From contig PDZT01000014.1 in the NCBI GenBank assembly GCA_002753105.1, positions 1 through 33,856 of the forward strand: DNA of 33,856 nt. Direction: 5' to 3'. The DNA is from Deltaproteobacteria bacterium YD0425bin50 (lineage in GTDB: Bacteria > Desulfobacterota > Desulfobacteria > Desulfobacterales > YD0425bin50). Below the pieces are notes generated by a model, which worked only from the letters and a program-made list of their open reading frames with translations, made no database searches and was not told the origin of the DNA. The translations under genes were made by a program, and so were the position numbers. Shown here piece by piece: positions 4,467 to 23,993 of this stretch (its first letter is position 1; the number at the start of each line of letters is the position of its first letter).

Positions 4467-5597
4467 TTAAAAAAATTTCGGATGTGCATTTAGTTTTTCG
4501 ATTAAATCATGTGTTACAGGTAATTGATTCGTTTCATAACAAACGATGACCTGATCATAATGATTAGGATAAACATTATATACAAAATTGGGAATCTGAT
4601 CAAAATAATTATCCTCAAATTCGATCTTATAGTGTATATCGTTATCAATAAGTATAGGTGATCGGGTTGTGGATTGAAACCAAATCGTAAACCCCTGATT
4701 TTCAAGTTCTTCAGCTAATTTAAAAGGAAAAAATAAAAATTCTCCGGTTCCTAATACAAGAATGGTATCATCATTGTTTAGAAAATTCATGTGGTTAATA
4801 CATGATAACATATCCACTTCTGGAATATCACGATACCCCAATCTTCCCCAATTTTTTTTTAAATACCTATTTTTATCATTGCGATTCCCTGTAGAATCTA
4901 TGTTAGTTATGTGCTGGAAATTGGGATTGGGTTCAAATTCAAAATGTCCATCTAATATGCTGACAATTTTCATATTACATTGGATTTTGTCAAGAATAAC
5001 TTGATATTTTTCCTGATTAATCCAGTTGGTCAGTACAACAAAGATGACCTGTTCAATATGTGGATTTACTTTTTTAAAGCGAAGAATCAGATTGATAAAT
5101 GTATTGCCTGTACTGAGTTCATCATCAATTAATATCAGTGTTCTTGAATGATAAAATATTTCTTTATCAGCAGGTTCAATCGGTTCATAGAGAATATGAT
5201 CTGTTGCATGACTATGGGTCTCGTCAAATGTAAACGCCTGTTTTTGAGTTAAGATATATCGGGTTGTATGTATAAAAACGCTTTCAGTATCTGGATTAGC
5301 AAGCATGAATTCTTCATAAATCCCCTGCCCTAAACCTGTAGCTGTTTCTGCAAGTGCAACAAAAACGACTGGAGAACGGATATAGAGCAAAGATAGTTTT
5401 TGCGCAAAAATACGGTATATTTCCCGCATTTTAGATGGTCTATTTGGATAATGTTTTCCCAGTACTTTACTAATAAATAAGTAGCCCCGCTTTGGATTAT
5501 TTCTGCTTCCAAACCCAAATAAGTCCTCTAAAGGGATATCCGTTCTCTCCACATGAATTGATAAGGTTCCGGTTTGTAAGATGACGGTTTTGTTCAT
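4467..5597 (-). CDS. Phosphoribosyltransferase with TRSP domain (Ter-associated)
   Basis: The PRPP-binding loop (LILIDDELSTGNT, about residues 153-166) and an upstream VFVALAETATGLGQG segment identify a phosphoribosyltransferase fold. The C-terminal third carries VLGTGEFLFFPFKLAEEL followed by FQSTTRSPI, the signature that names the TRSP domain. Such fusions are known from Ter stress gene clusters, where comparative genomics has proposed that they help make a nucleoside-like metabolite. The start is uncertain. The frame is open from a TTG at 5678 and an ATG at 5651, both inside terD, but ATG 5597 lies 16 bp after the terD stop and begins MNKTVILQTGTLSIHVE, a plausible domain start (370 aa). 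Translational coupling to terD is likely, as no strong ribosome site is visible. The reaction is inferred from family literature. Confidence 0.85.
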   Translation of the reverse strand: MNKTVILQTGTLSIHVERTDIPLEDLFGFGSRNNPKRGYLFISKVLGKHYPNRPSKMREIYRIFAQKLSLLYIRSPVVFVALAETATGLGQGIYEEFMLANPDTESVFIHTTRYILTQKQAFTFDETHSHATDHILYEPIEPADKEIFYHSRTLILIDDELSTGNTFINLILRFKKVNPHIEQVIFVVLTNWINQEKYQVILDKIQCNMKIVSILDGHFEFEPNPNFQHITNIDSTGNRNDKNRYLKKNWGRLGYRDIPEVDMLSCINHMNFLNNDDTILVLGTGEFLFFPFKLAEELENQGFTIWFQSTTRSPILIDNDIHYKIEFEDNYFDQIPNFVYNVYPNHYDQVIVCYETNQLPVTHDLIEKLNAHPKFF

Positions 5598-5613
5598 GTT
5601 AAAATCGACAGCT

Positions 5614-6825
5614 TTATTTAGCGCCAGCAACCCATCGGAAACCGAATCCATAATGTTGATCTGCGTCTTTATGTCCAAAAAAGTATTTCTCTTCCTTTGT
5701 TATTTCAATCTTATCCCCAATATTTTGAATGGTACATACTGCACAAAAAGTACGGCTTGCATTCGGATTATTGAGCTTCATAAATATTTCATTACCCAAT
5801 TCGTCTTTTATGGTTACTCTTCCATTAACTACCGTAAAATTTGCAGTTCCTTCATAAATAAATGTGAATATCAACACCTTAGTGATTAAATCCGGACGCA
5901 AAATATAAAGATTTTCACCATCTGATGCTTGTCCGCTTCTATCGTCTTTATCAAGATATATAAAAGGAGTATCATTTCTAGAACCAAACGATCGGCCAAG
6001 CGCCTGAATAACGCCAATCATTCCATCTTTGAGTAAAAACATACACCCAAGGTCTAAATCGGCCTGAATGGTTTTCGAGCCAAAAAAACCTTGTTGTTTA
6101 ATGCTTTGATCCCAGTTTAAGTTGATATGGATCGGCTGGATATCCCCTTTTTTTCTTAAATCTACGGTTTTTTTATCCCCTCTTTTTTCAAGTGTAATTT
6201 TGGTAAGCGTAATTTTGGGTGGTAACGCAGGTGGTGAAGGTGGAGACGGCGTCGGAGGTTGAGGAGTGGGTTGAGACGGTTTGGGTGATGAAGAAGGTGC
6301 AAGCTCTTCTCCTCCAAAATGCTTTAATAAAGCACTTAATCCTCCATTAAATCCCTGTCCCACAGCAGAAAATCTCCAGATATCTTTGAAATACATTTCG
6401 CCTAATATAATGGCTTTTTCAGAGGCGAAATCAGTACCAGAGAAGGAAAATCGGGCAACTTCATTATTGTCAGATAATAATCGAATAAATCCAGAAGATA
6501 TCTGACTCATCACTTCATTGCCGTCAATAGCCGCTGTAAACACAAGCTTTTTAATGGACGAAGGTAATTTTGTAAGATTCAGTTCAAATCGTTCACTATC
6601 TCCAAGAACCTGTCCACGTTTTCTTACAGCATTTTCTGGAGAATTGGGCTGATTATAGAAAATAAAATACCTGTCATCTGACAGTTTATCGTTTTGGTCA
6701 ACGCCAAAACACGCGATGTCAATGGATACCTGCCTTCCAAAATCAATTTTTATACCCACCTGAATATTACTTAGTGATTGAGTAATATCCTGAATTTTTA
6801 TCTTTTGTCCTCGTACAAGATTCAT
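5614..6825 (-). CDS. Two-domain TerD-family stress protein with proline-rich linker
   Basis: Residues 1-175 are a complete TerD domain: an opening MNLVRGQKIKI, the acidic calcium-type pattern (DIACFGVDQNDKLSDDRYFIFYNQ), and the classic ending LGEMYFKDIWRFSAVGQGFNGG. A linker at about 177-203 is almost all Pro/Ser/Thr/Gln. Residues 205-403 form a second TerD-like domain (INLNWDQ, ADLDLGCMFLLKDG, FIYLDKDDRSG), ending HYGFGFRWVAGAK. This TerD-linker-TerD plan resembles the TerA/TerF type of the Ter system. There is no signal peptide, so it is cytoplasmic or attached at the inner membrane face. AAGGAG lies 10 bases before the ATG. It is the first gene of a likely terD-PRTase unit. Calcium binding is a family property, not shown here. 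Confidence 0.9.
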   Translation of the reverse strand: MNLVRGQKIKIQDITQSLSNIQVGIKIDFGRQVSIDIACFGVDQNDKLSDDRYFIFYNQPNSPENAVRKRGQVLGDSERFELNLTKLPSSIKKLVFTAAIDGNEVMSQISSGFIRLLSDNNEVARFSFSGTDFASEKAIILGEMYFKDIWRFSAVGQGFNGGLSALLKHFGGEELAPSSSPKPSQPTPQPPTPSPPSPPALPPKITLTKITLEKRGDKKTVDLRKKGDIQPIHINLNWDQSIKQQGFFGSKTIQADLDLGCMFLLKDGMIGVIQALGRSFGSRNDTPFIYLDKDDRSGQASDGENLYILRPDLITKVLIFTFIYEGTANFTVVNGRVTIKDELGNEIFMKLNNPNASRTFCAVCTIQNIGDKIEITKEEKYFFGHKDADQHYGFGFRWVAGAK

Positions 6826-6896
6826 AAGCGTTATTCTCCTTATGACTTTTACCGGATCATCTTATTTCGTTCAGTTCAGTTTATTAGTCAACCCAG

Positions 6897-7304
6897 TTAG
6901 TAACTAATAATCCGGGTAATCTGTTGAAAATGTTTAAGATTTCTGGTTACAAGTACAGCCCTATTGGCAAGACTGATACTTGCAATCAGAATATCAGTAC
7001 GTCCAATCTTTTTATATATTTTCATATTTCGTAACTGTTCAAACTGAATTGCTGATTTTTCATCTATTCCTATTACTGGAATCTGTGAAAGAAGTTCCTC
7101 TGTACGATACAATAAGTTCTGTGCTCTTAACAATTGAAACCTATCAGATGCTTTCAACAGAAATTCAAAACGTCCACGTAACAATTCAATTTTTGTAATT
7201 ATGGTAATTCTTAAATCAGAATCATCAAGCTTTTTCAGATTATCAACGACTTTCAGATTTCCAGCGTGTAAATGTGTAATCGTATCGGTATCAAGAATAT
7301 GCAT
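6897..7304 (-). CDS. PIN-domain toxin (VapC-like)
   Basis: The 135-residue product starts MHILDTDTITHLHAG, giving the first PIN acidic pair (D5, D7). An internal acidic residue (TKIELLRGRFE) and IGRTDILIASISLA near the C-terminus complete the metal-binding set of PIN ribonucleases. VapC-type toxins cleave RNA and are held in check by the upstream antitoxin. Its ATG overlaps the TAA of the preceding gene by one base (TAATG), so the two are translated together. It sits between terD and the terB remnant, which suggests insertion into the Ter region. Confidence 0.85.
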   Translation of the reverse strand: MHILDTDTITHLHAGNLKVVDNLKKLDDSDLRITIITKIELLRGRFEFLLKASDRFQLLRAQNLLYRTEELLSQIPVIGIDEKSAIQFEQLRNMKIYKKIGRTDILIASISLANRAVLVTRNLKHFQQITRIISY

Positions 7305-7597
7305 TATGAATCTGTTTCCTTTTCAGGCCTTCCTCTTTCAGAATAAATCATTAAGCGAAGTTTCTCCAAAGAATCATCGCCTGAAAATGCACCAGACTGA
7401 CCTATCAATAGTGTTCTGTGATCACAATTGCTTAACCAGTCATCTATAGCTGTTTTCAAAAAACGCCATTCATCATCAATTCTTTGTCCCTGAATTTTAC
7501 CTTGAATAACCTGTTGTTTTATTTTATCTTCAGGTATTTTTAAATATTTTGCCGCCTCCCGTAAGGTAAATATCCTGTCTGTAGATATCTGACTCAT
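7304..7597 (-). CDS. Helix-turn-helix antitoxin of the PIN toxin pair (excisionase/MerR-type fold)
   Basis: This 97-residue protein contains RIFTLREAAKYLKIPEDKIK, then IQGQRIDDEWRFLKTAIDDWL, a helix-turn-helix typical of excisionase-like or MerR-like DNA-binding modules. The C-terminal 40 residues (charged, SGAFSGDDSLEKLRLMIY) would be the toxin-binding part. It precedes the PIN toxin gene with a one-base overlap, and AAAAGGAC lies just upstream of the ATG. It probably represses its own operon. A different antitoxin fold than the common AbrB or MetJ types is used, which some PIN systems do. Confidence 0.8.
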   Translation of the reverse strand: MSQISTDRIFTLREAAKYLKIPEDKIKQQVIQGKIQGQRIDDEWRFLKTAIDDWLSNCDHRTLLIGQSGAFSGDDSLEKLRLMIYSERGRPEKETDS

Positions 7598-7629
7598 TTT
7601 TTGTCCTTTTGGTTATTACCAACATTTTC

Positions 7630-7761
7630 GGCCTTGATCATCGTTTCGGCCGACATTATCGTTGCCGCAACAGAATTGTAGGGGCGAACCTTGTGTTCGC
7701 CCTCCAAAAGGGCGATGACAAGCATCGCCCCTACATTGTGGCCGAAACGATGATAAAGGCC
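7630..7761. repeat. Palindromic element C: conserved arms, GTAGGGGCGA core
   Basis: The left arm (7630-7651, GGCCTTGATC...CGTTTCGGCC) is inverted at 7740-7761 (GGCCGAAACG...AAAGGCC). The core at 7678-7734 starts GTAGGGGCGAACCTTGTGTT and ends GCATCGCCCCTAC. The ACATTATCGTTG stretch between left arm and core is also shared with the copy at 2013-2144. It lies upstream of the PIN toxin operon and downstream of the terB fragment. A 67-codon open frame across it is an artefact of the repeat. Confidence 0.9.
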
Positions 7762-7843
7762 ACATTTTCTTTTTTTGATTATTTCTGATTGATTCTAATA
7801 AATGAGCAATTCCGGGCATCTATTAGAATTTGACTATCATGCT

Positions 7844-7991
7844 TTATACCAAATTAAAATCTTTAGGATTAAGCCCTAATTCAGCGCAAATATCTCTGAC
7901 AATTTGTTTTTCAGTATCATCAAAATTGCCATCTGCTGCACCAATAGCACAACATACGCGAACCATCAGTTTTGCTTCTTCGGGTTTCTTT
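7844..7991 (-). pseudogene. Duplicated 3' fragment of terB
   Basis: This stretch repeats the last 48 codons and the stop of the terB gene at 8643-9104 (KKPEEAKLMVRVCCAIGAAD through GLNPKDFNLV). I count only a few base changes, for example CCC/TCC and GCG/GTG, nearly all silent; at the protein level I see only T to A in DIC(A/T)ELG. The match ends abruptly at about 7991, where two GCTCCAGC palindromes take over. The open frame continues through them to an ATG at 8062, which would give a 72-residue chimera with no obvious ribosome site. It is best read as a recent partial duplication of terB, not a working gene. Confidence 0.85.
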
Positions 7992-7996
7992 TCGAT

Positions 7997-8046
7997 CGTT
8001 CCCACGCTCCAGCGTGGGAACGCGGTATCGGACGCTCCAGCGTCCG
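7997..8046. repeat. Pair of GCTCCAGC palindromes
   Basis: The first, 7997-8022, is a 26-base inverted repeat with the centre CACGCTCCAGCGTG and ends CGTTCC/GGAACG. After CGGTAT, the second (8029-8046, CGGACGCTCCAGCGTCCG) repeats the same central GACGCTCCAGCGTC idea. The first matches the partial copy at 607-629. Together they close off the duplicated terB fragment, so they may mark the junction of the rearrangement. Confidence 0.85.
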
Positions 8047-8126
8047 TTTTATTCAAAACCATAATATATAGATTTCCAGATATTCAATTTCACAATTGAG
8101 AGCAAAATGAGAAGTGGTAAATTCCC

Positions 8127-8153
8127 GTAGGGCGAGGCATGCCTCGCCCCTAC
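8127..8153. repeat. Short GTAGGGCGAGGCATGCCTCG palindrome
   Basis: GTAGGGCGAGGCAT is followed directly by ATGCCTCGCC-type complement ending CCCCTAC, an almost perfect 27-base palindrome with one bulged base. The outer GTAGGG/CCCTAC ends are the same as in the cores of the elements at 2061-2117 and 7678-7734, so it is probably a solo core of that family. It lies downstream of hicA and could also fold as a transcription stop. Confidence 0.75.
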
Positions 8154-8194
8154 AATCGTTCATCTTTGCAATTATTTATCTGAAAACCTGTATG

Positions 8195-8410
8195 TTATAA
8201 ATCTTCTGGTAATAATCCTGTTTTCTTTGCAATACGTGTCAACATGCGAGGGCCTATTTCTTCATTATCATGAAAAGAAAATACAAAATCAGCCCATCCA
8301 CTTCGTGATAGTATCCGATGCGAACCCTTTGCTTCTCGTTTAATAATCCAGCCAATTCGCAACAATGCAGATAAAACAAGCCGTGCTTTTACAGATTTCC
8401 ATTGACTCAT
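8195..8410 (-). CDS. hicA: HicA-family mRNA interferase toxin
   Basis: The product has 71 residues, the usual HicA size. It shows the double-stranded-RNA-binding-like HicA pattern: VLSALLRIGWIIKREAKGSHRILSR with the catalytic His in GSHRI, then FSFHDNEEIGPRMLTRIAKK, equivalent to the family's H-x-x-K/E-I-x-x-G-T-L-R-x-I-L-K tail. HicA toxins cut mRNA in translation arrest. The ATG overlaps the stop of hicB by four bases (ATGA), so the pair is translationally coupled, antitoxin first, an order found in a subset of hic loci. Confidence 0.85.
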   Translation of the reverse strand: MSQWKSVKARLVLSALLRIGWIIKREAKGSHRILSRSGWADFVFSFHDNEEIGPRMLTRIAKKTGLLPEDL

Positions 8411-8616
8411 GCAGCTATCAGGAAAACCTGCTCCATTTCTGGTATGCTCTCACCATGCTCTAAACGGTCTGCCAATACACGTAAAACTAAAGATTTAACC
8501 ATAATAATGGCTTGCTCTCGAGTTTTTCCATATGTCATAATACCCGGAATCTCAGAAATTTCAGCAAGCCATCGACCGTCCACTTCCTGTTCAATTTCAA
8601 TTGTCAGGTTCATCAT
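8407..8616 (-). CDS. hicB: HicB-family antitoxin
   Basis: This 69-residue protein has the HicB partial RNase-H fold: LTIEIEQEVDGRWLAEISEIPGI (strand-rich, with the conserved DGRW), then MTYGKTREQAIIMVKSLVLRVLADRLE and a short C-terminal extension (GESIPEMEQVFLIAA). It lacks a DNA-binding domain, so autoregulation would depend on another factor or on the complex. AAGGA abuts the first of two adjacent ATG codons (8616 and 8613), and the second may be the real start. It lies just downstream of terB. Confidence 0.85.
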   Translation of the reverse strand: MMNLTIEIEQEVDGRWLAEISEIPGIMTYGKTREQAIIMVKSLVLRVLADRLEHGESIPEMEQVFLIAA

Positions 8617-8642
8617 TCCTTATATATCTCATTTGTTATGAA

Positions 8643-9104
8643 TTATACTAAATTAAAATCTTTAGGATTAAGTCCTAATTCAGTGCAAATATCTCTGACA
8701 ATTTGTTTTTCAGTATCATCAAAATTGCCATCTGCTGCACCAATAGCACAACATACACGAACCATCAGTTTTGCTTCTTCGGGTTTCTTTTTTAGTTTGG
8801 CAATACTTTTTAATGCCTCACCTTTTCCAATCATCAGATCAAAATTCATTTTGGTTACATACGATTCAAAAATTTTTATCGCTTCTTCTACATTAAATAC
8901 ACTTAACGCTTCATTTTGCTGAATAAAACCAATTGTTTTCCGTTTTTCATCAGGACTGATTACACCATCCGCATAAGCAACCATAGCACAGCCAGCAACA
9001 ACAGCATCTAGAAAATCCTTATTTTTAAATTTCTGAACTTCTGATTTAAGCGATGCAGATTGTTCTTTTACCCAAGATGAAAATTTATCAAAAACAGTAC
9101 TCAT
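8643..9104 (-). CDS. terB: TerB-family tellurite-resistance/stress protein
   Basis: The start at 9104 (MSTVFDKFSSWVKEQ) has AAAGGAATAGGATT directly upstream; the longer frame from 9152 adds a 16-residue leader without a site. The 153-residue product is all-helical with the TerB metal-binding pattern repeated twice: AYADGVISPDEKRK and GAADGNFDDTEKQIV, each with the D-G-x-(I/F)-x-x-x-E core. TerB links the membrane TerC and the TerD proteins in Ter stress responses (family knowledge). It is separated from the terD-PRTase pair here by two toxin-antitoxin loci and several palindromes. Its last 48 codons are duplicated at 7844-7991. Confidence 0.9.
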   Translation of the reverse strand: MSTVFDKFSSWVKEQSASLKSEVQKFKNKDFLDAVVAGCAMVAYADGVISPDEKRKTIGFIQQNEALSVFNVEEAIKIFESYVTKMNFDLMIGKGEALKSIAKLKKKPEEAKLMVRVCCAIGAADGNFDDTEKQIVRDICTELGLNPKDFNLV

Positions 9105-9191
9105 AATCCTATTCCTTTCATTAAATAAGTTATAAAAAAGGTTAACTACCAATAAACATGAACCTGATATAAATTAATTCCCTCAATTCGG

Positions 9192-9571: not shown

Positions 9572-12500
9572 TCATTTTTCATAGAGTTTTTCTATCCCAT
9601 CCCAATGATCTGGAATCCCTTCATGTATATATTTTTTACAACGATTGAGATATAAGTGAACTATCTGGTCATGTGCATTGCTGTTTAGCATTGATGAAAA
9701 CAAATCATATGCTTTTGAAAATTCTTTACGCTGATAACACGCCATTGCCTTACTAAAATCACTCAGTGTATTCATTTTCAAATCGCGCTGCTTTTCGATA
9801 AGACCATCTAAAATTTCTATAAGTGCAACTGCATCTGATTTTCCTTTTACCCTAACAGTATCAATAAGTCTATAGGCATAATTTTCTTTTTTCTGAATTT
9901 TATCTAAGGTGCTATTGCTGATAATGATGTTGGTTCCGTAATACTTGTTTAATCCTTCAAGTCGGGACGCGAGATTGACATTGTCAGAAATAACGGTGCC
10001 ATCCATTCTGTTTTTCCCGCCAACAGTTCCAAGCATGAGTTTTCCTGTATGAATACCAATGCCGATTTCAATAGGATCATAGCCTTTTTGGATTCGCCTG
10101 ATATTATACTGAAAAACTTCCTGTTGCATAGCAATCCCTGCATTGATGGCATGTTCTGGTTCCAGCGGAAATAACGCCATGATTGCATCACCAATGTATT
10201 TATCAATAAATCCCTGATGATCATTGATGATCGGTTCCATTCGCCGTAAATAGGAATTGATAAAATCAAAATTTTCCTGAGCAGTCATTTTTTCTGACAA
10301 GGTAGTGAATGATCGAATATCTGAAAACAAAACTGTCATTTCTTTTAATACCTGATTGCCTAATTCCACTTCTAAAATAGTTTCTTTATCCAGATAATTC
10401 AAAAACTCCTTTGGCACAAATCGTTCATACGCAATACTTAATTTTGAGGAATATATATGACTTTGCAGCCTTGCCATGAGTTCTTTTTTGGAAAATGGCT
10501 TGATCAAATAATCATTGGCACCAGACTCAAACCCAACTATCAAATCATTGATCTGGTTTTTGGCTGTTAATAAAATAATGGGTAAGGTGTTTTTTGAAAA
10601 GCGTTCTCTGATTTTTTGCGTTAATTCATACCCTGACATTTTGGGCATCATAATATCGATAATTGCAAGGTCTGGTACATACCCCTGATCCATACAATCA
10701 ATCGCTTCAAACGCATTTAATGCCTGAGTTACTGCATACTTATGCAGTTGTAAATAATTCATCAAGACCTGTAAATTAATGGGTTCATCATCCACAATGA
10801 GAATTTTAAAGGTCTTTTGTTCGTGCTCCCCTGAGTCTTTGGGAACTATTTCATGTGCATCAATACCTGATTCTTCTGTATCTATGACATGACGAATATG
10901 TTCAGGATTAATCTGTAAAGGTATAGCAGTTAGATTGTCTTTAGAAGCAGGTAACCCAATAATAAATGTTGAGCCTTGCCCCAAAACTGATTCAACCCGT
11001 ATATATCCATGATGGAGTTCTATAAGCTGTTTGCTAATACTTAAACCAAGCCCTGTGCCTCCATATGTTCGTTCTGTATCGCCATCAGCCTGCTCAAAAG
11101 ACTCAAAAATGGCATTGAATTTATCTGCAGGAATGCCAATACCAGAATCCTTCACATACACTTCCACATAGTCGCCGTTATATTGAGCAGACATCTCAAC
11201 TGTTCCGCGTTCTGTAAATTTAATGGCATTGCCAATCACATTGATAAATATTTGTTGAATTCGATTTTCATCGCCCATGATTGAAGTTACTTGGTCGATT
11301 TTGTTGGACAGGATCAGTTCTTTTTTGCCAATTAACGGTTGAGTCAATAACATCACGATATCAATGATGGTTTTGATATCTATGGGTTTGGTTTGTAATT
11401 CAATATGCTTGTGTTTGAGCTTTGAAAAATCTAAAATGTCATTCACCAGCGTATTCAGTCGTGTTGCACTCAAATTGACCATATACAGATTTTTTCGCAT
11501 GGTATTATTTAACGGGCCTGATACACCATCAAGTATGGAATCCACAAGTCCAATAATTCCATTTAAAGGCGTTCTCAGCTCGTGCGATGTATTGGCTAAA
11601 AACTCATCTTTCATCTTGTCAATTTTCTTCAAACGCTCCGATACCTGACGTTCCTGATCAAGTTCTTTTTTTTGCGTATCAATTTTTTTCTGCTGCGCTG
11701 CTGTCTTAAAACGAATAAACAAAACAACACCGCAAATTAAACCCAGTACATACAAGGTATATGCCCACCATGTTTTCCAAGGCGGCGGATAAACGTTAAT
11801 TTGAATACGCATTCCAGTTTCATTCCATAATCCGTCATTGTTGGATCCTTTCACGTTGAACCAATAGGTTCCGCCATCAAGATTGGTGTAGCTGGCATAT
11901 CTACGATTCTCACAGTATAACCATTCCTGATCAAACCCTTCCAGTTGATACGCATACTGGTTTTGGTTAGGATTTACATAATCAAGCGCAACAAATTCAA
12001 ATGAGATGTAATTATCTTTATATGACAACACAATACGGCCTTGATTATCAAGACTCTTTTCAATACGCTGCATTCGATCAAAAATGCCAAAACCTGTGAT
12101 ATATACTGGAGGAATATGAGGATTATTCTTGATATGCTGCGGGTAAAAATACGTTAATCCATTGATGCCGCCAAAAAACATCTCGCCTTTGCTGCTTTGA
12201 TGATAGGCTCCCATGTTGAATTCATTGCTTTGAAGCCCATCCTGAACATCATAGTTCTGGATTTGGCCTGAACTTGGAGTATATTTGGAAATACCTTTGT
12301 TGGTGGATAACCACAGATTACCCTCAGTATCTTCCAATATCCCATAGATTGTATTATTAGGCAATCCCTCTTTTTCTGTAACATGCTTGAATTCATGCGT
12401 ATTTCTATCCAGTTGGTCTAAACCGTTACCGGTTCCAATCCATAATCGTTCATGACGATCTTCATAAATACAAAATACACGGTTGTTTAAAATACTTGTG

Positions 12501-14152
12501 GGTTGGTAAACATCATGTTGATATAAACCCCATTGCTGCTTTTGGGGATCAAAAAAATTTAACCCATTTTCAACACCGACCCAAAGCAATCCCTGTTTGT
12601 CTAAAAACAACGTTCTGACTTTATTGTGACTTAATGAATTCTTGTTGTTTGGATCATGTTTTAGGCAAGTAAACGTTTCAGTGGCAAGGTCAAAAATATT
12701 GACGCCGCCAGCATAGGTGCCTATCCATAAATATCCTTTTGGATCGTAACGAATCCACATCACATCATTACTTGAAATCGTTTTTAAATTCGCCGGATCA
12801 TTTTTAAACACTTGAAATGCGTTGGTCTTGGGATCAAATCGATTCAACCCGTCTTCCGTTCCAATCCACATCCGATTTTGTCCATCCTCACAAAAGGCTT
12901 GTACCCGATTATTACTTAAACTATTAGGATTTTCAGAATCATGGTGATAATTCACTAATGTATTGGTTTGCCGGTCATAGATATAAACCCCTGCCTGTTG
13001 AGTCCCAAGCCATAATAAGCGGTTATGATCTTCATAAATTGACCAAATATTACTGTCTTTCATGCTGGTTGGATTTTGAGGATCATGTTTCAGATGATAT
13101 TGAAATTTTTTAGGAGAATATTTGTTGACGCCGCCGAGATACGTTCCAAACCACACATTCCCGGCATTGTCTTCATATATTGAAAATATATCATTATGGG
13201 TTAAACTGAATGGGTCTGAAGGATCATGAAGAAATCGTCTGAATTCTTTTTTTTCAGGATTGAATAGATGTAATCCTTTATCTGTACCGACCCAAAATCG
13301 GCCATATGAATCTTCGAATATCGCTTGAATAGTATTGCTGTTCAGTGTTTTTACATCATGTTCTTCCATGTAAAACCGTGAAAATTCATTCGTGTTTGGG
13401 TTAAATCGAATGAGTCCAGATTTATTTGTTCCTAACCATAGTTCATCAGCTTTTCGTGGGTATATTACCGTAATAGAATTGTCTGCAATTCCCGGATATG
13501 CTTCTTGGGTATATGACTTGAATTGATTTGTTGTTGGATTGAATCGGTTTAAACCGCCTTCATCAGTTCCAATCCATAGCATCCCCTGATCATCTTCAGA
13601 AATTGCAAGAATGTGATGATGACTTAATGAATTCTTATCATTAGGATCGTTTTTGTAAATTGTAAAAGACTGAGTTGATTTATCAAATTTGCATAAACCA
13701 TTTTCAGTACCGATCCAAAGCATTCCATGTTTATCTTCATGGATAACTGTCAGGATATCATCAGATATAGAATGATTATTCTTGGGATCGTGGTTGTAAC
13801 GAATAAAGCGTTCGGTTAGGGGATCAAATCGGTTTAACCCTCCGCCTTTAGTGCCAATCCAAAAAATTCCCTGTTTATCCTGCAACATTACTCTGACATG
13901 GTTATCAGACAATGAATTTGCGTTAAATGGATCACTTTTATAATAAATGAATCGATGGCCATCATACTTGTTGATACCATCCTGTGTGGCAAACCACATG
14001 TATCCTTGATGATCCTGAAGTATAGAGGTTACTGAACTTTCTGATAATCCATCGTTAATGGTGATAGAATTAAATTTGGGGAAGACATCTTGTCCATTTG
14101 CCGAACAAGCAATACTTATGGTAAGCATGGTAAAAAAAAGAATTGATTTCAT
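9572..14152 (-). CDS. Giant hybrid sensor: beta-propeller, histidine kinase, receiver and class III nucleotide cyclase
   Basis: 1526 residues. A signal sequence (MKSILFFTMLTISIACSANG) precedes about 14 propeller units of the two-component-regulator type (for example DHQGYMWFATQDGINKYDG, DKQGIFWIGTKGGGLNRFDP). A Y_Y_Y domain follows (about 700-780; YQLEGFDQEW, GGTYWFNVKGSNNDGLW). One membrane helix (about 792-813, TLYVLGLICGVVLFIRF) leads into the cytoplasm. There it has HisKA with H857 (SHELRTPLNG), HATPase (GTGLGLSISKQLIELHHG), a receiver with D1166 (IIDIMMPKMSG) and a class III cyclase. Metal aspartates D1278 (FSDIRSF) and D1322 (GDAIMALF), purine-selecting K1318 and D1384, and catalytic N1393 and R1397 (VNLASRLEG) are present, which favours ATP and cAMP. 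A short helical tail ends the protein. The ligand is unknown; propellers in this family often read extracellular polysaccharides. Confidence 0.93.
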   Translation of the reverse strand: MKSILFFTMLTISIACSANGQDVFPKFNSITINDGLSESSVTSILQDHQGYMWFATQDGINKYDGHRFIYYKSDPFNANSLSDNHVRVMLQDKQGIFWIGTKGGGLNRFDPLTERFIRYNHDPKNNHSISDDILTVIHEDKHGMLWIGTENGLCKFDKSTQSFTIYKNDPNDKNSLSHHHILAISEDDQGMLWIGTDEGGLNRFNPTTNQFKSYTQEAYPGIADNSITVIYPRKADELWLGTNKSGLIRFNPNTNEFSRFYMEEHDVKTLNSNTIQAIFEDSYGRFWVGTDKGLHLFNPEKKEFRRFLHDPSDPFSLTHNDIFSIYEDNAGNVWFGTYLGGVNKYSPKKFQYHLKHDPQNPTSMKDSNIWSIYEDHNRLLWLGTQQAGVYIYDRQTNTLVNYHHDSENPNSLSNNRVQAFCEDGQNRMWIGTEDGLNRFDPKTNAFQVFKNDPANLKTISSNDVMWIRYDPKGYLWIGTYAGGVNIFDLATETFTCLKHDPNNKNSLSHNKVRTLFLDKQGLLWVGVENGLNFFDPQKQQWGLYQHDVYQPTSILNNRVFCIYEDRHERLWIGTGNGLDQLDRNTHEFKHVTEKEGLPNNTIYGILEDTEGNLWLSTNKGISKYTPSSGQIQNYDVQDGLQSNEFNMGAYHQSSKGEMFFGGINGLTYFYPQHIKNNPHIPPVYITGFGIFDRMQRIEKSLDNQGRIVLSYKDNYISFEFVALDYVNPNQNQYAYQLEGFDQEWLYCENRRYASYTNLDGGTYWFNVKGSNNDGLWNETGMRIQINVYPPPWKTWWAYTLYVLGLICGVVLFIRFKTAAQQKKIDTQKKELDQERQVSERLKKIDKMKDEFLANTSHELRTPLNGIIGLVDSILDGVSGPLNNTMRKNLYMVNLSATRLNTLVNDILDFSKLKHKHIELQTKPIDIKTIIDIVMLLTQPLIGKKELILSNKIDQVTSIMGDENRIQQIFINVIGNAIKFTERGTVEMSAQYNGDYVEVYVKDSGIGIPADKFNAIFESFEQADGDTERTYGGTGLGLSISKQLIELHHGYIRVESVLGQGSTFIIGLPASKDNLTAIPLQINPEHIRHVIDTEESGIDAHEIVPKDSGEHEQKTFKILIVDDEPINLQVLMNYLQLHKYAVTQALNAFEAIDCMDQGYVPDLAIIDIMMPKMSGYELTQKIRERFSKNTLPIILLTAKNQINDLIVGFESGANDYLIKPFSKKELMARLQSHIYSSKLSIAYERFVPKEFLNYLDKETILEVELGNQVLKEMTVLFSDIRSFTTLSEKMTAQENFDFINSYLRRMEPIINDHQGFIDKYIGDAIMALFPLEPEHAINAGIAMQQEVFQYNIRRIQKGYDPIEIGIGIHTGKLMLGTVGGKNRMDGTVISDNVNLASRLEGLNKYYGTNIIISNSTLDKIQKKENYAYRLIDTVRVKGKSDAVALIEILDGLIEKQRDLKMNTLSDFSKAMACYQRKEFSKAYDLFSSMLNSNAHDQIVHLYLNRCKKYIHEGIPDHWDGIEKLYEK

Positions 14153-15174: not shown

Positions 15175-16110
15175 TCAATGCAGAGTAACCTGATTCAGCA
15201 TACTGGTAAACTGCTCGAGATTTTTTGACTTTAAAGCTGCTCGGAATAAACTTCGAAGCGTATCGGTCTGAGAAATCGCTTTTATTTTTTCGGAAACATG
15301 GGTTGGTAATATACCAAAAGACTCTATCAGCACATCCATCAGCATTTCACGAACCCCCTTTTCTAAACCTTCTAACAAGCCTTCTTTTCGTCCTTGTTCT
15401 AAGCCCTTTTCTCTTGCAAGTTCTAGGATATCTATCATTTGAATTTCCTCCCATAAATCGTTTAATCTGTTTTTATCGATCATTTTATTCGCCATGATAA
15501 ATGTTGCTGCAAGAAGCCTAACAGATAACCTGCCTTGGATATATAAATCTTTTTCCAACCGAATCACATCTTCAGCCAGTTGACTCCGTTCCATTCCGGT
15601 TTCTTTACCATAAAGAGGAACAAACACGAGCTCCATAAGGCTGCACAGATTATTAGAACGAATCTCTTCACGGATGCGATTCAGAGTTTCCAGTCCATTC
15701 CGTTCAGACAGATCAATAACAATCGGCATATAAGTTCCGCTTGGCGTCTTGATTTCTTTTTTCCCATCCTCCCCGCTAAAAACATTACCTGAAGCAATAA
15801 TCACATCAGTCAGCTTATCCTTATATTTTTTTGCACCCATAAAATGATACGCAGCAAACCGGTATAAGTCGTCTTTGCATAAATCCCGCTGTTCTTCAAT
15901 GTGGTATATTGCGTCTTGATCATCTTTGATCATAATATCTACCCTGCCAGAGGTTACAGCAATATCAACCGGTTCAAACGTAAAGACTTCCTTAATTTTT
16001 CCGGTTTTCAGTCCAATGACTTCTAATGTTTCTCCGCACAATAACTCAGACATCCACTTGATAATAAAATCGTAATTCTGAGAGTAGTTTGTCCCATTTT
16101 TCGGTTTCAT
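15175..16110 (-). CDS. Rpn-family PD-(D/E)XK nuclease, tandem copy 1
   Basis: This 311-residue protein has the Rpn plan. The N-terminal nuclease has RVDIMIKDDQDAIYHIEEQR (Asp, then E-x-Q, the active-site variant usual in Rpn proteins), FAAYHFMGAKKYKDKLTDVI and PIVIDLSE. It is followed by a helical region and the Gly/Glu-rich spacer EKGLEQGRKEGLLEGLEKGV before a final helical tail. Rpn proteins are Mg-dependent DNA endonucleases that promote recombination and have been linked to phage defence. It lies 11 bp downstream of an almost identical gene (16122-17057); the residues differ only in the first ten positions (MKPKNGTNYS versus MQPKNGISYG) and near the end (VTLH/VSLH). Confidence 0.85.
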   Translation of the reverse strand: MKPKNGTNYSQNYDFIIKWMSELLCGETLEVIGLKTGKIKEVFTFEPVDIAVTSGRVDIMIKDDQDAIYHIEEQRDLCKDDLYRFAAYHFMGAKKYKDKLTDVIIASGNVFSGEDGKKEIKTPSGTYMPIVIDLSERNGLETLNRIREEIRSNNLCSLMELVFVPLYGKETGMERSQLAEDVIRLEKDLYIQGRLSVRLLAATFIMANKMIDKNRLNDLWEEIQMIDILELAREKGLEQGRKEGLLEGLEKGVREMLMDVLIESFGILPTHVSEKIKAISQTDTLRSLFRAALKSKNLEQFTSMLNQVTLH

Positions 16111-16121
16111 TATTGCTCCTG

Positions 16122-17057
16122 TTAATGCAGACTAACCTGATTCAGCATACTGGTAAACTGCTCGAGATTTTTTGACTTTAAAGCTGCTCGGAATAAACTT
16201 CGAAGCGTATCGGTCTGAGAAATCGCTTTTATTTTTTCGGAAACATGGGTTGGTAATATACCAAAAGACTCTATCAGCACATCCATCAGCATTTCACGAA
16301 CCCCCTTTTCTAAACCTTCTAACAAGCCTTCTTTTCGTCCTTGTTCTAAGCCCTTTTCTCTTGCAAGTTCTAGGATATCTATCATTTGAATTTCCTCCCA
16401 TAAATCGTTTAATCTGTTTTTATCGATCATTTTATTCGCCATGATAAATGTTGCTGCAAGAAGCCTAACAGATAACCTGCCTTGGATATATAAATCTTTT
16501 TCCAACCGAATCACATCTTCAGCCAGTTGACTCCGTTCCATTCCGGTTTCTTTACCATAAAGAGGAACAAACACGAGCTCCATAAGGCTGCACAGATTAT
16601 TAGAACGAATCTCTTCACGGATGCGATTCAGAGTTTCCAGTCCATTCCGTTCAGACAGATCAATAACAATCGGCATATAAGTTCCGCTTGGCGTCTTGAT
16701 TTCTTTTTTCCCATCCTCCCCGCTAAAAACATTACCTGAAGCAATAATCACATCAGTCAGCTTATCCTTATATTTTTTTGCACCCATAAAATGATACGCA
16801 GCAAACCGGTATAAGTCGTCTTTGCATAAATCCCGCTGTTCTTCAATGTGGTATATTGCGTCTTGATCATCTTTGATCATAATATCTACCCTGCCAGAGG
16901 TTACAGCAATATCAACCGGTTCAAACGTAAAGACTTCCTTAATTTTTCCGGTTTTCAGTCCAATGACTTCTAATGTTTCTCCGCACAATAACTCAGACAT
17001 CCACTTGATAATAAAGTCGTAATTCTGTCCGTAGCTTATCCCGTTTTTAGGTTGCAT
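16122..17057 (-). CDS. Rpn-family PD-(D/E)XK nuclease, tandem copy 2
   Basis: Same domain plan and length as the gene at 15175-16110. It has the catalytic pattern VDIMIKD...HIEEQR and a GRKEGLLEGLEKG hinge. The difference lies at the extreme N-terminus (MQPKNGISYGQNYDF) and one Thr-to-Ser change near the C-terminus. It is first in the direction of transcription, so it is probably the parental or promoter-proximal copy. It may be read together with copy 1, whose start follows 11 bp after its stop. Transposase-like annotations of this family are common, but the known activity is of a recombination-promoting nuclease. Confidence 0.85.
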   Translation of the reverse strand: MQPKNGISYGQNYDFIIKWMSELLCGETLEVIGLKTGKIKEVFTFEPVDIAVTSGRVDIMIKDDQDAIYHIEEQRDLCKDDLYRFAAYHFMGAKKYKDKLTDVIIASGNVFSGEDGKKEIKTPSGTYMPIVIDLSERNGLETLNRIREEIRSNNLCSLMELVFVPLYGKETGMERSQLAEDVIRLEKDLYIQGRLSVRLLAATFIMANKMIDKNRLNDLWEEIQMIDILELAREKGLEQGRKEGLLEGLEKGVREMLMDVLIESFGILPTHVSEKIKAISQTDTLRSLFRAALKSKNLEQFTSMLNQVSLH

Positions 17058-21983: not shown

Positions 21984-22949
21984 ATGAGCCAAAAAGAAAT
22001 ACATTTTTCACCCGAGGATGAAAAATTATTCAGTAAAATTGGGAAAATCTGTAATTTTGCTGATGGGGATATTATTTTTAACCAAGGTGATATGGGTAGA
22101 AGCATGTTTTATATTAAAGAGGGAATCGTTTGCCTGATTTTTGATGGCTGGAGAAGTGAAAAGGAATTAGAAGCTGGCAATATTTTCGGTGAATTAGCGT
22201 TTATTATGGGAAGTCATTGTCGGACAGGAACTGCCATGGCTGTCGGGGATACTTGTTTGATTGAATTATCGCAGGAAACCGTTGAAGAACTCATTGAGGT
22301 TAACCCCCGCTGGCTGATTTCTGTATTTCGAAGAACATGCGCTTATCTATTGGAATCTGAACAAAATTTGGTCATTGATTTAAAAGAAAATAATCAAAAA
22401 CTTAAGCTAACCGTTGATTACCTTGTGCGTACCAAAAATGAATTGAACCAAAAGGAAATTTTAGCAAATACAGATGGATTAACACGCCTTTATAATCGGC
22501 GTTTATGGGATCAACAACTGGATAAATGTATAGAACTCGCAAAAAATGAAAGCTCACCCTTATGTCTTGTGATGTTTGATCTTGATGGATTTAAACCGAT
22601 TAATGATAAACTTGGCCATGCAGTTGGAGATGACGCATTGAGAAGTGTAGCAAAAATACTGATGGAATGTGTTTCACAAACTGATATCCCGTGCCGTTTA
22701 GGTGGTGATGAATTTGGCGTCATCATGCCGGGAGTAAAAGCGGATGAGTCTCAGTTAGTCTGTGAACAATTACTTCATAAAATTGCTGCAATACCCACAC
22801 AGGATTTAGATGGTAATCTTCGCTTAACAGCTAGTATAGGTGGAACCTCCATGCAACCAGAAGATACTCCCGAATCAATTATGCAGCGAATTGATAAAAA
22901 TGTTTATATGGCAAAAAATACGGGAAAAAATCGTGTAATATGGGGATAG
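21984..22949 (+). CDS. Cyclic-nucleotide-binding domain fused to GGDEF diguanylate cyclase
   Basis: Residues 15-125 are a CNB domain (FADGDIIFNQGDMGRSMFYI, KEGIVCLIFDG). Its phosphate-binding cassette NIFGELAFIMGSHCRTGTA keeps the Glu and the Arg (R80) that hold a cyclic phosphate. A coiled linker (about 125-160) leads to a GGDEF domain (about 160-321): DGLTRLYNRRLWDQQL, VMFDLDGFKPIND and RLGGDEFGV (240-244), so the active site is intact. The product-inhibition I-site position reads SQTD, not RxxD, so feedback by c-di-GMP is probably absent. The plan suggests c-di-GMP synthesis controlled by cAMP or a related ligand. It is 28 bp after the DHH-CBS gene. Confidence 0.92.
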   Translation: MSQKEIHFSPEDEKLFSKIGKICNFADGDIIFNQGDMGRSMFYIKEGIVCLIFDGWRSEKELEAGNIFGELAFIMGSHCRTGTAMAVGDTCLIELSQETVEELIEVNPRWLISVFRRTCAYLLESEQNLVIDLKENNQKLKLTVDYLVRTKNELNQKEILANTDGLTRLYNRRLWDQQLDKCIELAKNESSPLCLVMFDLDGFKPINDKLGHAVGDDALRSVAKILMECVSQTDIPCRLGGDEFGVIMPGVKADESQLVCEQLLHKIAAIPTQDLDGNLRLTASIGGTSMQPEDTPESIMQRIDKNVYMAKNTGKNRVIWG

Positions 22950-23072: not shown

Positions 23073-23993
23073 ATGACTGAAGAATTGGAATTGGAAAAAC
23101 AGAAAATTTTAATTGTGGATGATATGCCGCTGAATATTCAAGTCCTAAATCAAGTACTTGAACATGACTATCAAACTTTTTTTGCAACTTCTGGAAAAGA
23201 TGCATTAGATCTGGCGCTGACTGTGCTTCCTGATCTAATGCTCCTAGATATAAAAATGCCAGATATGGATGGCTATGAATTATGTCGTCAAATCAAAAAC
23301 GCCCCGGTACTTAAACATATCCCCGTCATTTTTATAACATCATTGAATCAGGAAGAAGATGAAACCATTGGTTTGGAATTAGGCGCAGTGGATTATATCT
23401 CTAAACCCTTTAGTTCAGCTATTGTGAAATTAAGAGTTCGGAATCATTTAGAATTGAAAAGACAACGGGATATTCTTTCCAAGTTATCTTCATTGGATGG
23501 ATTGACGGGCATAGCTAACCGACGGATATTTGATGAGTATTATCAATGGGAATGGAAGCGATGTACCCGAACTCAGACATTTTTGTCCTTAATCTTATTA
23601 GACATCGATTATTTTAAAGCATTTAATGACCATTATGGCCATCTTCATGGAGATAATTGCCTGAAAAAAGTTGCGCAAACGCTTGCTAATGCGGTTAAAC
23701 GTTCAAATGATTTAGTTGCTCGGTATGGTGGTGAAGAATTTGTCTGTTTATTACCAGAAACGAATTTTGAAGGTCTTGTATCCGTTGCAGAACACATGAG
23801 AAAAAGAATAGAATCACTTCAAATCCCCCATGCAAATTCTTGCACAGCACCTTATGTTACCATAAGCATTGGTGGCGGAACCATTAAACATTTTTCTGAA
23901 AATACCCCTGAAAGTTTTTTAGGTTTTGTGGACAGGCTGTTATATCAAGTTAAAAATCAAGGACGTAATAACATAAAATGTGCGGCTATTTAG
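23073..23993 (+). CDS. PleD-like response regulator with GGDEF diguanylate cyclase
   Basis: Residues 10-130 are a receiver domain with phospho-acceptor D59 (LMLLDIKMPDMDG), acidic pair DD (ILIVDDMP) and K111 (YISKPF). Residues about 140-306 are a GGDEF domain: DGLTGIANRRIFDEYY, LILLDIDYFKAFNDHYGH and RYGGEEFVCLLPE (219-223). The I-site R210-S-N-D213 stands five residues before the GGEEF, so product inhibition is expected, in contrast to the CNB-GGDEF protein just upstream. The gene ends overlapping the 3' end of holA by 8 bp on the other strand. The kinase that phosphorylates it is not identifiable. Confidence 0.95.
   Translation: MTEELELEKQKILIVDDMPLNIQVLNQVLEHDYQTFFATSGKDALDLALTVLPDLMLLDIKMPDMDGYELCRQIKNAPVLKHIPVIFITSLNQEEDETIGLELGAVDYISKPFSSAIVKLRVRNHLELKRQRDILSKLSSLDGLTGIANRRIFDEYYQWEWKRCTRTQTFLSLILLDIDYFKAFNDHYGHLHGDNCLKKVAQTLANAVKRSNDLVARYGGEEFVCLLPETNFEGLVSVAEHMRKRIESLQIPHANSCTAPYVTISIGGGTIKHFSENTPESFLGFVDRLLYQVKNQGRNNIKCAAI

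What the first reader, a model, noticed from the sequence alone, without database searches (positions are those of the whole stretch)
9572..14152. One protein from outside sensor to cyclase
A propeller/Y_Y_Y sensor of the polysaccharide-sensing type continues through histidine kinase and receiver into a class III cyclase whose metal, purine-selecting and catalytic residues are all present. Normally such sensors end in a DNA-binding AraC-type domain. Here the output would be cAMP, and a phosphorylation step sits inside the same chain.
Basis: partly seen in the sequence, partly recalled or inferred. Interest (0 to 1): 0.6.

Follow-up and report, generated by a model that had tools for sequence, protein, structure and literature searches.

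The report
Propeller sensor kinase fused to cyclase
A single membrane protein appears to read a signal outside the cell, pass a phosphate along its own chain and end in an enzyme that makes cyclic AMP, a new pairing of two known parts that also turns up in a few other bacteria.

Summary
One uninterrupted 1526-aa frame (minus strand, 9572-14152) runs: signal peptide, about 13-14-blade propeller, Y_Y_Y, one membrane helix, HisKA, HATPase, receiver, class III cyclase, helical C-tail. All phosphotransfer and cyclase residues are present; the purine pair is Lys1318/Thr1386, the ATP-type pair of class IIIb cyclases.

The same full order is in three other genomes: one of the same order but another family, and two of Bacteroidota. 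It is therefore real and recurrent. The HK-REC-cyclase module also occurs behind dCache, HAMP and TPR inputs. It matches the known cyanobacterial CyaC plan, in which autophosphorylation and phosphotransfer activate the cyclase. So the internal phosphorylation step is not new. What is new, as far as I could find, is feeding that module from an HTCS-type periplasmic propeller.

Polysaccharide sensing is untested.

A bonus: a paralogue in the same genome joins the same type of sensor directly to a Cya2-type cyclase (Glu/Gly pair, predicted cGMP) with no kinase or receiver.

Verdict: new variant of a known kind, moderate interest.

The parts
9572..14152 (-). complete ORF, 1526 aa
   Evidence: single open frame ATG to stop
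14093..14152 (-). predicted signal peptide (residues 1-20, MKSILFFTMLTISIACSANG)
   Evidence: hydropathy; the cleavage site was not tested
11993..14092 (-). periplasmic double propeller (residues 21-720); 13 W-[ILFV]-G-T-like blade signatures
   Evidence: Pfam Reg_prop; 4a2l alignment over 5-794; blade count
11792..11983 (-). Y_Y_Y domain (724-787)
11708..11770 (-). single transmembrane helix (about 795-815)
   Evidence: hydropathy maximum 2.0
11414..11614 (-). HisKA (847-913), phospho-acceptor H857
10946..11275 (-). HATPase_c (960-1069), N, G1 and G2 boxes intact
10466..10804 (-). receiver domain (1117-1229), D1121/D1122, D1166, T1196, K1218
10352..10447 (-). REC-to-cyclase linker (1236-1267), RFVP-x-EFL..LGxxV motif, in the place of a cyclase transducer element
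   Evidence: conserved in homologues; helix running on from receiver helix 5 in the model
9833..10351 (-). class III cyclase (1268-1440); metals D1278/D1322, purine K1318/T1386, transition state N1393/R1397
   Evidence: fold matches 2w01, 3r5g, 1wc1
9575..9805 (-). C-terminal helical, TPR-like tail (1450-1526)
   Evidence: conserved in most HK-REC-cyclase homologues; helices in the model; TPR_2 hit in homologue G857, below its curated cut-off

Best explanation
A single-pass membrane sensor. An HTCS-type double propeller plus Y_Y_Y outside the cytoplasmic membrane binds an unknown ligand. The change crosses one helix to a dimeric histidine kinase, which autophosphorylates H857 and passes the phosphate to D1166 of the receiver in the same polypeptide. 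The receiver, joined through its last helix and a conserved RFVP/EFL linker to the homodimeric class IIIb catalytic domain, then sets the cyclase's activity and so cAMP. Shown here: the parts, their order, the residues and the recurrence. Inferred from CyaC: that phosphotransfer raises activity. Inferred from the Lys/Thr pair: that ATP is the substrate. Not shown: the ligand, the sign of regulation, and the cAMP target.
For: Domain order and residues. Sensor aligned end to end with sensor structure 4a2l. Same full chain in G060 (1459 aa), G816 (1559 aa) and G857 (1699 aa). HK-REC-cyclase-tail kept as a unit behind HAMP (L144), dCache (L179) and TPR (L181) inputs. Metal and Asn/Arg residues invariant in 36 cyclases. 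The REC-linker-cyclase model has mean pLDDT 83 and its cyclase matches Cya2, CyaB and CyaC. [quoted passage not shown] The genome holds 22 cNMP_binding matches over cut-off, so cAMP has candidate receivers.
Against: No activity data. Thr rather than Asp in the purine pair is also seen in some guanylyl cyclases (PMC4215837), though those carry Glu instead of Lys. The full-architecture homologue G857 has Gln for the purine lysine, so the product may not be the same in all. A receiver on a hybrid kinase can also act as a phosphate sink, leaving the cyclase regulated by conformation alone.
Confidence: 0.78

Rival explanations
1. Conformational coupling: the propeller signal reaches the cyclase mechanically along the helices, and kinase and receiver only tune or reset it.
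For: A sister sensor in the same genome (C257, sensor 41% identical) joins the propeller straight to a cyclase with no kinase or receiver, so phosphotransfer need not be essential for propeller-to-cyclase coupling.
Against: Here all kinase and receiver residues are kept, including in distant homologues; drift would be expected if they were idle.
Confidence: 0.12
2. The product is mainly cGMP or a mixture of cyclic nucleotides.
For: The second purine residue is Thr, which also occurs in some guanylyl cyclases (PMC4215837); Gln/Thr and Gln/Ala variants occur among relatives.
Against: Lys at the first position is the ATP-selecting residue; a single Glu-to-Lys exchange switches Cya2 from GTP to ATP (PMC5995499).
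Confidence: 0.06
3. The cyclase is inactive, or the receiver hands its phosphate to a separate partner, so the main output is not a cyclic nucleotide.
For: Unproven activity; the genome has a very large kinase/receiver set (207 matches to this protein).
Against: All six catalytic positions are intact, and metals and Asn/Arg are conserved across 36 cyclases.
Confidence: 0.04

Closest known systems
Cyanobacterial CyaC (Spirulina/Anabaena), HK-receiver-adenylyl cyclase
   Same: HK, receiver and class IIIb cyclase in one chain in the same order; Lys/Thr purine pair (CyaC pair from memory); cyclase fold match to 1wc1/1wc0; internal phosphotransfer as activator (Kasahara & Ohmori 1999)
   Different: CyaC, from memory, is soluble with an N-terminal receiver and GAF input; here the input is a transmembrane periplasmic propeller with Y_Y_Y. 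The cyclase is only about 28% identical to CyaC.
Bacteroides hybrid two-component systems (HTCS, e.g. PDB 4a2l, 3v9f)
   Same: Periplasmic double propeller + Y_Y_Y + TM + HK + receiver in one chain
   Different: HTCS end in an AraC-type DNA-binding module (PMC3404733); this ends in a nucleotide cyclase
Cya2-type guanylyl cyclases (2w01; chimera 6fht)
   Same: Same catalytic fold; closest solved relative of the paralogue C257
   Different: Cya2 has a Glu/Gly purine pair and a CHASE2 sensor; the window protein has Lys/Thr

Membership tests
Class III nucleotide cyclase, subclass IIIb adenylyl type | two metal aspartates | tested here: met
   D1278, D1322; invariant in 36 aligned cyclases
Class III nucleotide cyclase, subclass IIIb adenylyl type | purine pair Lys + Thr (IIIb) rather than Lys/Asp or Glu/Cys, Glu/Gly | tested here: met
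   K1318, T1386 aligned to CyaB 3r5g
Class III nucleotide cyclase, subclass IIIb adenylyl type | transition-state Asn and Arg | tested here: met
   N1393, R1397
Class III nucleotide cyclase, subclass IIIb adenylyl type | makes cAMP from ATP | not testable with these tools
   needs an enzyme assay
CyaC-type HK-REC-cyclase | HK, receiver and class III cyclase in this order in one chain, with intact residues | tested here: met
CyaC-type HK-REC-cyclase | extra N-terminal receiver/GAF input of cyanobacterial CyaC (recalled) | tested here: not met
   N-terminus is propeller + Y_Y_Y + TM; so not filed as a CyaC orthologue
CyaC-type HK-REC-cyclase | cyclase activated by phosphotransfer | not testable with these tools
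   needs an assay with D1166/H857 variants
HTCS | periplasmic propeller/Y_Y_Y sensor with TM, HK and receiver | tested here: met
HTCS | AraC-type HTH output | tested here: not met
   no HTH_18/AraC match in the protein; the C-terminus is a cyclase plus helical tail
HTCS | binds a carbohydrate and sits by its utilisation locus | tested here: inconclusive
   neighbours searched are TerD, TerB, PIN/HTH_17, PRTase, M23, trypsin-like, cNMP-GGDEF and REC-GGDEF; ligand binding not testable

The most novel reading that the evidence does not exclude
HTCS-type propeller sensors have been joined to the CyaC-type HK-REC-cyclase module several times independently, making a widespread but undescribed class of 'outside glycan-type sensor to cAMP' proteins. 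In this genome the same sensor type is also joined directly to a predicted guanylyl cyclase, giving a natural pair of phospho-coupled cAMP and directly coupled cGMP receptors.
Probability: 0.45. Interest if true: 0.5.

Novelty: new variant of a known kind. Interest (0 to 1): 0.38.

Why it matters
It shows that the large HTCS-type sensor, known mainly as a one-chain route to gene activation at sugar-use loci, can be wired to a diffusible second messenger instead. The paralogue wired directly to a cyclase without kinase or receiver gives a ready-made comparison of what the phosphorylation step adds.

Tried and rejected
Assembly chimera: rejected, same chain in three other genomes and uniform G+C. 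Single inheritance of the whole architecture: not favoured; in the cyclase tree the four propeller chains do not group and starred branches need at least 3 changes of the label, though one change may be a loss; the HK tree is too poorly resolved to decide. The genome-contig scan with the whole protein returned mostly unrelated hybrid kinases, its best matches ending at or just after the receiver, because its patterns fell largely in propeller, kinase and receiver. Phylum draws: no further HK-REC-cyclase in 395 genomes of the own phylum at E<=1e-85, nor in 398 of the phylum of Venteria beyond Venteria itself at E<=1e-95; thresholds were strict and only 4-6 candidates per genome were scored, so counts are lower bounds. 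Literature searches for a propeller-cyclase found nothing, but the library is open-access only. Promoter/terminator scan showed nothing above chance. The host's name was not determined.

Full report
WHAT IS THERE. The frame 9572-14152 is open for 1526 aa on the minus strand. Its first ~20 residues look like a signal peptide and one strong hydrophobic stretch lies at ~795-815. Between them lie at least 13 W-[ILFV]-G-T-like blade signatures, Reg_prop matches at E 3.7e-73 and a Y_Y_Y domain at 724-787. Residues 5-794 align end to end with 4a2l, and 30-794 with 3v9f, solved sensor parts of Bacteroides-type one-chain hybrids. After the membrane helix come HisKA, HATPase_c, Response_reg and Guanylate_cyc, each well above Pfam's cut-off, and a conserved ~75-residue helical tail.

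RESIDUES. H857 in SHELRTPL; N975, D1002 and the G2 box GGTGLG; receiver D1121/D1122, D1166, T1196, K1218; cyclase metals D1278 and D1322, purine-site K1318 and T1386, transition-state N1393 and R1397. In 36 aligned cyclases the metals and Asn/Arg never change. The purine pair is Lys/Thr in most, Lys/Asp in G060, G075 and L135, Gln/Thr in G857, and Gln/Ala, Asn/Thr or Glu/Gly in a few others. Lys at the first site selects ATP: one Glu-to-Lys change turns the guanylyl cyclase Cya2 into an adenylyl cyclase (PMC5995499), and Cya2's own pair is Glu/Gly (PMC4215837).

RECURRENCE. I searched for receiver-cyclase chains in 291 genomes of the same order, 395 of the phylum, 12 named genomes, 395 from the phylum of Aestuariibaculum, i.e. 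Bacteroidota, and 398 from the phylum of Venteria, then read the whole open frames and scanned seven with Pfam. The complete order propeller-Y_Y_Y-HisKA-HATPase-REC-cyclase-tail occurs in G060 (same order, other family), G816 and G857 (both from the Bacteroidota draw). The same HK-REC-cyclase-tail module sits behind HAMP in G075, dCache+HAMP in Candidatus Venteria ishoeyi and TPRs in Aestuariibaculum sediminum; a second copy in the window's own genome (C366) is cut by the contig end. Counts are lower bounds (strict E-values, few candidates scored per genome).

ORIGIN. In a tree of 36 cyclase domains the four propeller chains do not group; the well-supported branches require at least three changes of the 'propeller' label. 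That fits repeated joining of sensor and module, but gains and losses cannot be told apart. The kinase tree is too unresolved to add to this.

MECHANISM. [quoted passage not shown] the domain order of CyaC is from my own knowledge). A model of residues 1105-1526 from ten homologues (mean pLDDT 83) shows a receiver whose last helix runs into a short helical linker and then the cyclase. The cyclase part matches Cya2, CyaB and CyaC structures. I infer ligand -> kinase -> H857~P -> D1166~P -> change in the cyclase dimer -> cAMP. The ligand, the direction of control and the target are unknown. The genome has 22 cNMP_binding matches over cut-off, one of them fused to GGDEF 7.8 kb away in this window.

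The anatomy and residues are right. An AraC ending is indeed characteristic of Bacteroides HTCS (PMC3404733). But it is not the rule here: the three Y_Y_Y proteins found in this genome are this one, C257 (direct cyclase) and C340 (HK-REC-PAS and a probable second kinase core, cut by the contig end; the PAS and second kinase were read by eye from the sequence); none shows AraC. The internal phosphorylation step is the CyaC plan, not a novelty. Polysaccharide sensing is only a family-level guess.

A SISTER SENSOR. G000:C257 (L146, 1207 aa) has the same propeller/Y_Y_Y type (sensor 41% identical) joined directly to a cyclase whose best solved relatives are 6fht/2w01 (Cya2). Its purine residues are Glu/Gly as in Cya2, so cGMP is predicted. 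In 389 genomes of the order the cyclase half is common (up to 75% identical, mostly in chains of ~500 aa) but no other propeller fusion was seen at E<=1e-70.

VERDICT. Real, recurrent, functional-looking; a new combination of the HTCS input with the CyaC output. New variant of a known kind.

Noticed in passing
L146:3-3623 (G000:C257, 1207 aa): Propeller + Y_Y_Y + TM fused directly to a Cya2-type cyclase with Glu/Gly purine pair (predicted cGMP), without kinase or receiver; no other such fusion in 389 genomes of the order at E<=1e-70.
   Followed up: partly
window 21984-22949 (+): cNMP-binding domain fused to GGDEF, with Glu and Arg of a phosphate-binding cassette (FGELA...CRTGTA): a possible cAMP/cGMP-to-c-di-GMP link in the same window; followed by a REC-GGDEF gene at 23073-23993.
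   Followed up: partly
window 15175-16110 and 16122-17057 (-): Two nearly identical 311-aa genes in tandem, with no Pfam match for the second; sequence looks like the Rpn/PD-(D/E)XK transposase-type group (from memory). Recent duplication.
   Followed up: no
window 4467-9152 (-): Stress-type cluster: PRTase_2/TRSP protein overlapping a TerD gene, and a TerB-like gene, with a PIN + HTH_17 pair (toxin-antitoxin-like) between them.
   Followed up: partly
L192 (G857) and L181 (Aestuariibaculum sediminum): HK-REC-cyclases with Gln in place of the purine-site lysine (Gln/Thr, Gln/Ala); substrate unclear.
   Followed up: partly
G000 whole genome: Very large signalling set: 207 matches to this protein, mostly hybrid kinases, in 4.97 Mb at 75% completeness; 12 class III cyclase hits and 23 cNMP-binding hits.
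   Followed up: no
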